Below, in pieces: positions 48,701 through 54,700 of a DNA stretch of 64,000 nt. The number at the start of each line of letters is the position of its first letter. Positions within the stretch are counted from its first letter, which is position 1. The stretch covers positions 308,001 through 372,000 of the forward strand of contig CAIIXF020000012.1 of NCBI GenBank assembly GCA_903813345.2, given 5' to 3'. The DNA comes from Owenia fusiformis (lineage: Eukaryota; Annelida; Polychaeta; Sabellida; Oweniidae). The notes beneath the pieces are model-generated. The model had not been told where the DNA came from. It worked only from the letters and a program-made list of their open reading frames with translations, and did no database searches. The translations under genes and the position numbers were made by a program.

Positions 48701-51700
48701 CTATACACTGTTCATGGTACCATACAGTACCGTTTGAGTATGGCGCTATACACTGTTCATGGTACCATACAGTACCGTTTGAGTATAGTGCTATACACTG
48801 TTCATGGTACCATACAGCACCGTTTGAGTATGGTGCTATACACTGTTCATGGTACCATACTGTACCGTTTTAGTCCAAGGTAGTCAACCAAACAGTACTG
48901 TAACCAAAACTGTACCATATGGTACTGTTGCAGGTTGACTGTGTAGCAGGTGCAGGGTTCTCATTAGGCTTTTAGACTCCAGCGATTTGCCAGAGTCTAA
49001 TGTCTTTAGATCCTCTTGCTCCAAAGTCTTATAGCTTTACAGTCTAAAGTGTTTTCTCCGGAGTCGAATGTTACATTTTTGTCACATCATTTGTGGTTAA
49101 ACTCATGAAAAATATATAAAACTGGATACAGACAAGGAATAGAAAGTCAGAAACCTTTTAGATATGTACCTTGTGATTAAAATAGGAAGAAAATTAATAT
49201 TTTGAAAGTACACTAATAGGATATCTCTGATCTCACATGGGGGAGGAGTAGTCACGATACCGCGAAAAATGAGGGGTCTTATCATTTCTGGTGAGAATCC
49301 TGAGGTGTTCACATGTCAATGGCATCAATCGGAGATAATAACAAATTGGGCCTGAAATCATTTCACATTAAGACAATTTGGATGAGTGCAACTGTTGATT
49401 ATGAAATATAATTAAATGACAATTTCAATATCATCATTGCAATCAACTATTCTAGACTTGCTTCACAAAGTATGACAATCAGAGGAAATGTGTTAATAGA
49501 TTTTACACTGAGCTGACCTGAATTCACCCTTACATGGGAATGACATAAGAGTATTGATCTTTGAATCAAGATAGGAAACTTGCATCACAGATTTGAACAA
49601 TGTAATAATATACAACAAATCATTAATTGCTCAGAAGTAGTGCTGAAGAAACAGAACCAGAACTGTGCAATGTGATTGGTTGTGAGTGTTCAGCCATGGT
49701 TGAACTAGACAACAGCAATGCCAAGGCATGATATATCCCATCAAACAGCCCTACATGTCCTCTTCACAAAATTGCTTCACTACAATTTTAGTAACAGCAA
49801 ATTTCATAAAACAACACTTTTTCAAAATGGCAGCCATTTTGAATCTTTGAGACATATTTTGTTGAAGCTTGTAGACATTATTGATAACTTAGAAATTAAG
49901 GTACCTGTACAATTTTAAGCAAATTGATGGAATACTTGTGAAGAAAAAAGAGCTAAAAGCCTGAATTTCTGCAATAAGTTAGAGGCCATTTTGAATCTTT
50001 GCGATATTTTCCCGAATCGTATAGACATTGTTGATAATCTAAAAATAAAGGTACCTGCATAATTTCAAGCAAAGTAATGGAATATTTATGGAGTTATGAC
50101 CAAAGAGAAGCTGATAACCTATAAATTAAGGTACCTGTACAATTTCAAGCAAATCGGTGGAAAACATGTGGAGTTATAACCAAAAAGGAGCTGGAAACCT
50201 TTTGATACGCCACTTATGGAACAATCGACCTTATGTAGACACATTTTAAAAGTGAAACCATTCCAATTGTCGTGGAAGATTTTGAATAAGTTGCAAATGT
50301 GTTGACAGACAGACAGACGGACAGACAAGTGGGTGATAACAATAGCTCACCATTTGAGCTTATAAAAGACAGGTCTCGATATGGAGAAAGAAGTTCATCA
50401 GTGTACTGTGCTAATAATTTTTTTATGAAAAATATCCTCAAAAGAGGACATTTAAATCTACAATATGTGAAAATATCAAAATTGTCCAAAGCAGGCGTAA
50501 CATGCAATAGACTGATGAACTTCATTCTCCAAACTGAGTCTAGTCTTTTAATGAAGCGAGTAAGCTGTTAAGTACATGATGAGATTATATGTCTGGTAAT
50601 GCATGAATGTGGGATGCAGAGAGCACGCATAAAACATAGCAATGCTTGCATACATAGGACTGAATGTGATTCAAGGGTTTGTTTCAGGTAAGATCATAAC
50701 TTACGATTCTGAGAATGATTTGTGACCAAATTGTAAGTTACTACAGTTCCAAAAACAAACCCCAGTATCATATTTATCCCATCTTGGTGGATTATGGATT
50801 ACCAAGATAATGAAAGATTTGCCACCAGGGTTTGCAGAATCCAGTCATGAATAACAATAAATTGTATCCATGACAGCAAAACTTCCATGGCAACATATGG
50901 TCTTTTCGACAATATGCATATTCATTGCAACATTGTGTGATAATATAAAATTTAATAATAATACATAATATGGTCTTGATGGCGAGAAAATGTCTCCACA
51001 ATCTCATGATAATGAAACATGATTTCCACTCCAGAACAAAAAGACGTCTCCATGGCAACACATGGACTCCATGGCAACAAGGATACACATCTTTCATTTC
51101 TTCAATCTTCTCCGTACGAATGATATCTTGGATGTTAATAATCTGAAACCAAGATGACGTGCAGTTAAATCAGTTAGATAATTTTATTGAACAACTAATA
51201 TATTTACAGATTACAGCTAGCCCTTCATATATAGCGGAGACAGAGAGAGACAATTAGATTGCTAGCTTCAGAAATGTACAATCTTAAAATATATCTTCAC
51301 TTATACATGTATTATAGAACCAACACTGAAAAATCTCAATGTTGGTGATAAGAGAACATTTAGGAACTGTTCTGCTTACTCCTTGCTCAACAATATGAGC
51401 AAACAAGAAGATATATTGTTGTTTCAACTTAAAACATGTTACAAACAATTTTAGAAATATCTTAAGAAGGCAAAAGGGTGATCAGCAAGGTTTTCAGGTA
51501 AAGAATTTGAAAGACTGAACTATTGCTTTCTAACTGTTATATCATCAACTTTATCACATCCTTGCTGATATTGCACATGGCAACTACCAAGGCTCATTAT
51601 GTTGTACTGTGCCAGTACTGTATATTAAACAACTAAAAAACAGAACAGCATACAACATCAAAATTTACTAATAGAGTATCTTTATGGTATTGAAATTAAT

Positions 51701-54700
51701 TCAGCATTTGATCAAGGAAAAAAGATAAAGAATATCCCATAAACATACTTTGCACCGATAGTATATCTAATAAATATAAAGCAAAATCTATGATAAACTG
51801 GACTTTAAGACAAATTATCATACAAAGCCTAAAAAATGTTTAAAAAACTAACTACTAAGTATCATACATTATTACAATATTCTTTACAACATGTACAACA
51901 AAACATAACAACATAAAATAATATGGAACAATTTAGTGAACACACTCTGAAGCAGAAAGCCATCAAATGTTTCACCCTCATCAATGTAAGAGTTCCCCAT
52001 CTCACTTTACATCTTACATGATTTATAAATACACAAAATAGAATAGCATCTCTTACCTCCAATCGCTATTATTGATTATTGAATTTTTCAAAATTATCTA
52101 ATTTAGAAATAAATGAAAAAGGCAAGACTATCAAAAAACACCAAGTGTATGCTCTCAACACCCCCCCCCCCCCCATCTGATACTATAACATTAACCATGT
52201 CATAGATTGTACCAGAGACCCCCCCCCACCTGATACTATCACATTAACCATGTCATAGATTGTACCAGAGACCCCCACCTGATACTATAACATTAACCAT
52301 GTCATAGATTGTACCAGAGACCCCCCCACCTGATACTATAACATTAACCATGTCATAGATTGTACAAGAGATCCCCACCTGATACTATCACATCAAACAT
52401 GTCATAGATTGTACCAGACTCCTCCCCCACCTGATACTATCACATTAACCATGTCATCGATTGTACCAGAGACTCCCCCCACCTGATACTATAACATTAA
52501 CCATGTCATAGATTGTACAAGAGATCCCCACCTGATACTATCACATCAAACATGTCATAGATTGTACCAGAGACCCCCCCCCACCTGGTACTATAACATT
52601 AACCATGTCATAGATTGTACCAGACACCCCCACCTGATACTATCACATTAACCATGTCATAGATTGTACCAGAGACCCCCTCCCACCTGATACTATAACA
52701 TTAATAACCATGTCATAGATAGTGCCAGACTCCTCCCCCACCTGATACTATCACATTAAACATGTCATAGATTGTACCAGACTCCTCCCCCACCTGATAC
52801 TATCACATTAACCTTGTCATAGATAGTGCCAGACTCCTCCCCCACCTGGTACTATCACATTAAACATGTCATAGATAGTACCAGACTCCTCCCCCACCTG
52901 GTTAGGCTACACTGCAAGAAGCAATAAAGGATACACATCTTTTAAGTCATGCACGGTGGGAGCTCCAAGTATATCTTGTATATGTATGATCTGAAAGTAA
53001 ACCAACACTCCCTAACATTAAACCTGGGCCAGGTATTGCGGCTAAGGGCAGGATGTTTGGATAAGGACAGGACTTTTGTTTTGGCAGAGGCAGGAGTTTT
53101 CGCCAAAGTACAGGAATTTCAGCTGAATGGCAAGAATATGATTACTATAATTTATTGCTTTGGATTACTGCTTGGTCTGGTTTAGGTGTCCAATTACATG
53201 TACCAGTATAAGCAAAATAGATCACTTCAAAAACGTTTCTCTTTTCGAATCTCAACAGCCAATTTTAGAAATTCTCGTAATTGTCATAATTGTTCCTAAT
53301 AATGCACATGACTATGTCTTATGCAGTCTTATTGTTGAAAATCTAAATTATGATTATGATATTAGCCCAATTTACACTACGCACAGCATTCCAAGAGGTT
53401 TTGGCACCTTTTAGAAAAACTAAGTTGAGTTTACATTACCATTTTCAAGACGTCTTAGGAAATAAGATCAAGTTTACACCTGTTTTTCTAAAACATCTTA
53501 GAGATATGTAGGTATACATGTAAAATGAAAAAAAGCAGTTCAGTACTGGTTGAAGGACTGTTCAGTCAATATAACTATTCCTTTCCTGCTTCTATACTTT
53601 GTGCTAAAGAATGCATCGGTTTCACAAAAATATGTCCTAAAGACAGCATTGTTAAAAGCATTAAAGAGAGCAGGGAGATTTATGCATAAATTAGGATTAT
53701 GATAAATCGCCAGGCAAATAAGTTCTTCTCAATAATTTGGGGATGATATTGGGAACAAGGGATAAGACAAAATAAAGGATCATGCGACATATGTAAATGG
53801 AAAGTTTCAAATGTTTCGTTCGGCGCAACGCAAAAAAAATGGGCTAAGAGCTCTTAGCATGTAATATCATCATAATCATTATTTGTCACTGTTTATCCAA
53901 TTCAAAAGAATCAAGATGCCAGGAAAATCATAGATAGTGAAGTCATATTGTACAGCCTCATAGAACAGGGTGCCATGCTCCCGAGGGGCCCAATAGCAGT
54001 TCATAAAGTTAAGAAATCCTATATCAAGGGTTGTAACCATGGACATAATGATGTAATTATAGTAAGAGAACATTGGAGTTGGGAATTCTGAACTTTATGA
54101 ATGTTTCTGTAAATGAGCAAGGACATAATGATATAATAGTAAGAGAACAATGGAGTTGGGAATTCTGAACTTTATGAATGTTTCTGTCAATGAGCAAGGA
54201 CATAATGATATAATAGAAAGAGAACAATGGAGTTGGGAATTCTGAACTTTATGAATGTTTCTGTCAATGAGCAAGGACATAATGATATAATAGTAAGAGA
54301 ACAATGGAGTTGGGAATTCTGAACTTTATGAATGTTTCTGTAAATGAGCAAGGACATAATGATATAATAGTAAGAGAACAATGGAGTTGGGAATTCTGAA
54401 CATTATGAATGTTTCTGTAAATGAGCAAGGACATAATGATATAATAGTAAGAGAACAATGGAGTTGGGAATTCTGAACTTTATGAATGTTTCTGTAAATG
54501 AGCAAGGACATAATGATATAATAGTAAGAGAACAATGGAGTTGGGAATTCTGAACATTATGAATGTTTCTGTAAATGAGCAAGGACATAATGATATAATA
54601 GTAAGAGAACAATGGAGTTGGGAATTCTGAACTTTATGAATGTTTCTGTAAATGAGCAAGGACATAATGATATAATAGTAAGAGAACAATGGAGTTGGGA

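What the first reader, a model, noticed from the sequence alone, without database searches (positions are those of the whole stretch)
51087..52990. Two interchangeable 56-nt ERK exons, probably mutually exclusive
Exons at 52935-52990 and 51087-51142 (- strand) have the same length, phase (0 in, 2 out), donor context (AAAGATGT|GTATCC) and good acceptors. They encode [19 protein letters not shown] and [19 protein letters not shown], both alignable to human IIGINDIIRAPTIEQMKDV just before the kinase hinge. Including both or skipping both shifts the frame, so only one-of-two splicing makes kinase. JNK and p38 genes are known to have mutually exclusive exons at other sites; I know of no such pair described for ERK. 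The switched segment lies near helix C and the gatekeeper, so the isoforms could differ in activity or regulation.
Basis: partly seen in the sequence, partly recalled or inferred. Interest (0 to 1): 0.88.

Follow-up and report, generated by a model that had tools for sequence, protein, structure and literature searches.

The report
Either-or exon pair in ERK gene
An animal's ERK signalling-kinase gene carries two alternative versions of one small exon whose splice signals belong to two different splicing machines, an arrangement that should make each mRNA use exactly one of them.

Summary
The minus strand carries exons 2-9 of an ERK1/2 gene with two 56-nt copies of one exon (3A 52935-52990, 3B 51087-51142), 33/56 identical in DNA, both open and with splice sites. 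Either one gives a 363-aa ERK; both or neither gives a stop at codon 117 or 104. The substitution pattern (8/2/13 at codon positions 1/2/3) and simulations speak against neutral decay. Joining 3A to 3B, or exon 2 to exon 4, would need a mixed U2/U12 intron. This is the published architecture of vertebrate JNK exons 6a/6b (PMC8329584), in another MAP kinase and at another site. The genome has U11, U12, U4atac and U6atac loci, and its p38 gene carries a JNK-like pair at the second U12 position plus three copies of its hinge exon. No RNA and no relatives could be tested: use of both exons is inferred. Best call: new variant of a known kind.

The parts
59251..59377 (-). ERK exon 2 (127 nt), U2-type donor GTAAGT
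52935..52990 (-). alternative exon 3A (56 nt), peptide [18 protein letters not shown]
52926..52934 (-). U12-type 5' splice site of 3A, GTATCCTTT (9/9 to the recalled consensus)
51087..51142 (-). alternative exon 3B (56 nt), peptide [18 protein letters not shown]
51078..51086 (-). U12-type 5' splice site of 3B, GTATCCTTG (8/9)
43215..43221 (-). U12-like branch site CCTTAAC, 11 nt before the end of the acceptor of exon 4
43014..43203 (-). ERK exon 4 (190 nt), hinge to catalytic loop
42277..42481 (-). ERK exon 5 (205 nt), DFG and TEY; donor GTATCCTTA is U12-type
41989..42068 (-). ERK exon 6 (80 nt); acceptor with U12-like branch site TTCCTTAAT
40453..40531 (-). ERK exon 7 (79 nt), the last copy of an 80-bp tandem array
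40071..40180 (-). ERK exon 8 (110 nt), donor GCAAGT
39603..39728 (-). ERK exon 9, coding part with stop codon

Best explanation
Exons 3A and 3B are a tandemly duplicated, diverged exon of what appears to be the only ERK1/2 gene, spliced one-of-two. Exon 2 is joined by the major (U2) spliceosome to the acceptor of 3A or of 3B; the chosen exon is joined by the minor (U12) spliceosome to exon 4. Joining 3A to 3B would need a U12 donor with a U2 acceptor, and skipping both would need a U2 donor with a U12 acceptor; both are disfavoured, and both also shift the frame. Competition between the two U2 acceptors and the two U12 donors sets the ratio. The two proteins differ only in a stretch at beta4 and the beta4-beta5 loop of the N-lobe, before the gatekeeper (placement recalled). 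Shown here: sequence, frame, splice-site signals, presence of the minor-spliceosome snRNA genes, coding constraint. Inferred: that both mRNAs are made, that the choice is regulated, and that the isoforms differ in activity or partners.
For: Frame: A or B alone 363 aa, both or neither truncated. GTATCCTT occurs 3 times in 64 kb on both strands (2.35 expected), and 3 of 3 are ERK donors. Match to the U12 5' consensus: 3A 9/9, 3B 8/9, exon 5 8/9; exon 2 has GTAAGT 6/6. The acceptors of exons 4 and 6 carry CCTTAAC and TTCCTTAAT, 11 and 10 nt before the end of the intron. The two downstream flanks share 8/8 bases at the donor and 8/52 after it. U12 (2), U6atac (2), U11 (2) and U4atac (1) loci over the family cut-offs in the genome. 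Differences 8/2/13 by codon position; simulations. Precedent: MAPK8/9 exons 6a/6b (PMC8329584 passages). Same-genome parallel: p38 has two 72-nt exons with donors GTATCCTAG and GTATCCTTG before an acceptor with TTCCTTAAC.
Against: No transcript was available and no related species could be searched. The branch-site evidence is weaker than the donor evidence: by plain match count the exon 4 site scores 7/9, and the exon 9 acceptor, which follows a GC-AG intron, also reaches 7/9 with TTCCTTTTC, though without the AAC; CCTTAAC occurs 7 times in the window (5 on the minus strand), one of them before exon 4. The acceptors of 3A and 3B each have a 6/9 branch-like match (6 and 21 nt from the intron end; 3B's TGATTTAAC keeps the TTAAC core), so 3A-3B joining is not strictly excluded. 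Incompatibility is not absolute: PMC8329584 reports MAPK12 skipping that joins a U2 donor to the acceptor of a U12 intron when U12 snRNA is mutated. Synonymous divergence is saturated, so dN/dS is undefined (dN 0.42). Consensus letters were recalled.
Confidence: 0.8

Rival explanations
1. One copy is a relic: a duplicated exon that is no longer used, with one constitutive exon.
For: No RNA evidence for either copy here. 3A differs from human ERK2 where 3B agrees (for example G for R), although the reverse also holds (TEK in 3B for APT).
Against: Both are open and keep splice sites, changes concentrate at third positions, and neutral simulations rarely keep such similarity. The donor of 3A is the better U12 match (9/9 against 8/9).
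Confidence: 0.12
2. Exclusivity rests only on frame and nonsense-mediated decay, or on another mechanism such as competing RNA structure, with the U12 donors incidental.
For: Double inclusion and double skipping both give early stops. [quoted passage not shown]
Against: The U12 signals sit exactly on both donors, with a U12-like branch site at the shared acceptor, so wrong joins should be disfavoured before any decay. Competing RNA structures were not tested.
Confidence: 0.06
3. Haplotype mis-assembly, or a tandem second ERK gene.
For: None found; the region is rich in tandem repeats.
Against: The copies are only 59% identical. In the window exon 2 and exons 4-6, 8 and 9 gave one convincing hit each; exon 7 has partial copies in an array. 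Of the 40 genome hits, three are in the window and I looked at the loci of seven others: they read as ERK5, ERK3/4, NLK and p38 (labels from recall). The other 30 are weaker (E 7.6e-9 or worse) and were not examined; stretches withheld from the genome could hide a copy.
Confidence: 0.02

Closest known systems
Vertebrate JNK genes MAPK8/9, exons 6a/6b (PMC8329584 and PMC3584512, passages)
   Same: Two alternative exons, two U2-type acceptors and two U12-type donors, one downstream U12 acceptor; a MAP kinase gene.
   Different: JNK's pair is in the C-terminal lobe (PMC8586503 passages), before the other U12 position (mapping by recall); here the pair is in ERK, in the N-lobe after KDV. The ERK exons are 56 nt and also frame-locked; exon 6 of this genome's JNK is 72 nt.
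TMEM87A/B exons 11/11a (PMC6717393 and PMC8329584, passages)
   Same: Mutually exclusive exons around a U12 intron.
   Different: Unrelated gene and protein.
Mammalian ERK splice forms ERK1b and ERK1c (PMC8699841 passages)
   Same: Alternative forms of ERK from one gene.
   Different: They carry intron 7 sequence near the C-terminus, not an exchanged duplicate exon. The same passages name ERK1psi and ERK2a transcripts, whose structure I did not see.
p38 gene of the same genome (G000 C5; L009, L004, L008)
   Same: Two exon copies, both with U12-type donors, before one U12-like acceptor.
   Different: 72-nt exons at the second U12 position; it also has three hinge-exon copies whose donors lack the GTATCCTT signal.

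Membership tests
ERK1/2 MAP kinase | Kinase domain closest to ERK1/2, with TEY activation loop | tested here: met
Mutually exclusive exon pair | Adjacent homologous exons of same length and phase | tested here: met
Mutually exclusive exon pair | Each alone keeps frame, both or neither does not | tested here: met
Mutually exclusive exon pair | Transcripts with each exon, none with both | not testable with these tools
   no RNA data held
U12-type intron | 5' site RTATCCTTT | tested here: met
   3A 9/9, 3B 8/9; 3 of 3 GTATCCTT in the window are ERK donors; consensus recalled
U12-type intron | Branch site TTCCTTAAC close to the acceptor | tested here: met
   Exon 4: AGCCTTAAC, 7/9, 11 nt away. Weak on its own: the exon 9 acceptor also scores 7/9 by count, without the AAC.
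U12-type intron | Minor spliceosome present in the organism | tested here: met
   U12, U6atac, U11, U4atac loci over cut-off; its proteins were not searched
JNK-type interlocked U2/U12 exon switch | Two U2 acceptors and two U12 donors in alternating order | tested here: met
   architecture from PMC8329584
JNK-type interlocked U2/U12 exon switch | Homologous position in the kinase | tested here: not met
   The pair lies at the KDV/YIVQ junction in the N-lobe; JNK's is in the C-terminal lobe. JNK and p38 of this genome have GTAAGT donors at the ERK position.

The most novel reading that the evidence does not exclude
The MAP kinases of this lineage are wired to the minor spliceosome: exon duplications just upstream of U12 introns were kept separately in ERK (exon 3) and p38 (exon 6), because U2/U12 incompatibility makes any such duplication mutually exclusive at birth. 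Minor-spliceosome activity, which in mammals responds to p38 through U6atac levels (PMC6717393 passages), would then help to set which ERK and p38 isoforms a cell makes. If the animal is the annelid Owenia, that is an animal in which ERK is an embryonic organising signal (PMC9050690).
Probability: 0.2. Interest if true: 0.85.

Novelty: new variant of a known kind. Interest (0 to 1): 0.64.

Why it matters
ERK1/2 is among the most studied signalling kinases, and an exchange of a duplicated kinase-domain exon in it did not appear in the listings I saw. Here one gene would supply two ERKs that differ only in the N-lobe, with a one-of-two rule built from two spliceosomes. Together with JNK in vertebrates and p38 in this genome it suggests a simple, testable rule: exons duplicated just before a U12 intron become mutually exclusive without further evolution.

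Tried and rejected
Retrocopies as fossil evidence of splicing: the genome search gave long single-exon hits, but the two best read as ERK5 and ERK3/4 and a third place as NLK, so they say nothing about use of 3A or 3B. Tandem second ERK gene: rejected for the window. A third copy of exon 3 in the window or in the p38 and JNK loci: none among the 12 best rows for each. ATATCCTT, the other U12 donor class: five times on the minus strand, all near 4.8-5.0 kb, none in ERK. NOVA-like YCAY motifs: 16 in the 300 nt after 3B, gene mean 7.3; 6.2% of gene windows and 10 of 213 non-overlapping minus-strand windows are as rich, though none of 5000 base shuffles is; I looked at four windows after the fact, so it is a lead only. 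The rows for the donors of exons 4 and 8 were cut one base off and are not used; one search gives them. The collections of viral and prokaryote contigs were not scanned.

Species: probably the annelid Owenia fusiformis, an inference only: 498 Mb in 525 contigs here against 505.8 Mb and 12 chromosome-scale scaffolds (PMC9977687 passages), and one ERK1/2 in both (PMC9050690 passages). No sequence test was made.

Full report
What is there. The minus strand of the window holds exons 2 to 9 of an ERK1/2 gene; exon 1 lies about 4 kb beyond the window end (L010). The joined coding sequence gives 363 residues with either 3A or 3B. A 124-residue piece with 3B matches MAPK1 chains in the PDB with E near 7e-65, and the same piece with either exon matches the kinase family PF00069. 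In the 498-Mb genome, one search lists 40 hits: three are in the window; I looked at the loci of seven others, which read as ERK5, ERK3/4, NLK and p38 (names from recall); the remaining 30 are weaker (E 7.6e-9 or worse) and were not examined. A single ERK1/2 gene is therefore likely, but withheld stretches could hide another.

The pair. 3A and 3B are 56 nt each, 1.8 kb apart, 33/56 identical. Of 23 differences in the 18 full codons, 8, 2 and 13 fall at first, second and third positions. In 20,000 simulations each way, 57-58% stay free of stop codons, 0.03% (B to A) and 0.2% (A to B) keep the observed similarity to the starting copy, and none keeps the observed similarity to human ERK2. Upstream flanks agree at 19/60 (11 of the last 20); downstream, 8/8 at the donor and 8/52 beyond it. 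Including both gives a stop after 116 residues, skipping both after 103.

The mechanism. GTATCCTT is the core of the U12-type 5' splice site (consensus recalled). It occurs three times in the 64 kb on both strands, with 2.35 expected, and all three are ERK donors: 3A, 3B and exon 5. The acceptors these donors would use, exons 4 and 6, carry CCTTAAC and TTCCTTAAT 11 and 10 nt before the end of the intron. Branch-site evidence alone is weaker: CCTTAAC occurs seven times in the window, and by plain match count the exon 9 acceptor scores as high as exon 4's (7/9), without the AAC. Exon 2 has a perfect GTAAGT donor. The 3A and 3B acceptors have only 6/9 branch-like matches, 3B's with a TTAAC core 21 nt away, which is a caveat. 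U11, U12, U4atac and U6atac loci are in the genome. So 3A to 3B, and exon 2 to exon 4, are mixed-class joins.

Precedent. A review (PMC8329584, passages) describes the same interlocked arrangement, two U2-type 3' sites and two U12-type 5' sites, for MAPK8/9 exons 6a/6b, with tissue-specific use under regulators such as Nova. Another (PMC3584512, passages) describes the hybrid JNK intron. A survey of human clusters (PMC5740500, passages) found U2/U12 incompatibility in five of 629. PMC8199999 (passages) lists ERK2 among genes with minor introns, and PMC9405558 (passages) lists MAPK1 and MAPK3 among genes affected by ZRSR2 mutations. PMC8329584 also reports MAPK12 skipping across classes when U12 snRNA is mutated, so the rule is strong but not absolute.

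Same-genome comparison. In JNK and p38 of this genome the intron at the homologous place (after QDV or NDV) has a GTAAGT donor, and one copy of the exon before it was found in the stretches fetched (17 and 25 kb). At the second U12 place JNK has one exon found (donor GTATCCCTT), ERK one (exon 5), and p38 two 72-nt exons, both with U12-type donors, before an acceptor with TTCCTTAAC. p38 also has three copies of the hinge exon, each one base plus 37 codons, with donors that lack GTATCCTT. So ERK and p38 each carry a JNK-style switch, at different U12 introns.

What it may do. The switched stretch covers beta4 and the beta4-beta5 loop of the N-lobe just before the gatekeeper (placement from recall of the ERK2 structure). 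Most hydrophobic positions are kept in both; the loop differs (GAPTVHDL against RTEKIEEM). An effect on partner binding or activation is inference. If the animal is Owenia fusiformis, as size and a single ERK1/2 suggest, the switch lies in a gene described as an organising signal of its embryo (PMC9050690: title and start of the abstract, passages; the words isoform and splice do not occur in its main text).

Novelty. I saw titles and abstract beginnings of capped listings: 20 of 152 papers, 15 of 207, 15 of 2,527, 15 of 14,463, 12 of 179, 8 of 8, 8 of 31 and 10 of 67. None is presented as a duplicated-exon switch in ERK. The review of MAPK splicing PMC8699841 (outline and passages) has no occurrence of 'mutually exclusive' and describes ERK1b and ERK1c; PMC3775402 (passages) mentions ERK1c. 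Subscription papers are mostly not covered, so an earlier report is possible.

Limits. No RNA, no relatives, no structure. I put 0.8 on the U2/U12-enforced switch and 0.12 on one copy being unused.

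Noticed in passing
L009, L004, L008 (G000 C5 about 20.226-20.248 Mb): p38 gene with three tandem copies of its hinge exon (1 + 37 codons each), which would shift frame if combined, and two 72-nt copies of the exon before its U12 intron: possibly six p38 isoforms.
   Followed up: partly
window 40478-41248: 80-bp tandem array of 9.6 copies made of the end of intron 6 plus part of exon 7; only the last copy continues into the rest of exon 7 and a donor.
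   Followed up: partly
window 39000-39642: 64-bp tandem array of 10 copies (scan began at 39000) that starts inside the last coding codons of ERK exon 9.
   Followed up: no
window 40061-40070: ERK intron 8 begins with GCAAGT and ends in AG, a GC-AG intron.
   Followed up: no
window 54041-58003, 45329-46854, 52167-52900: Long minisatellites inside ERK introns: 77 bp x 52, 91 bp x 16.7, 52 bp x 14.2.
   Followed up: no
window 50787-51086: 16 YCAY motifs in the 300 nt after exon 3B, gene mean 7.3; 6.2% of gene windows are as rich. Nova is named as a regulator of the JNK pair in PMC8329584.
   Followed up: partly
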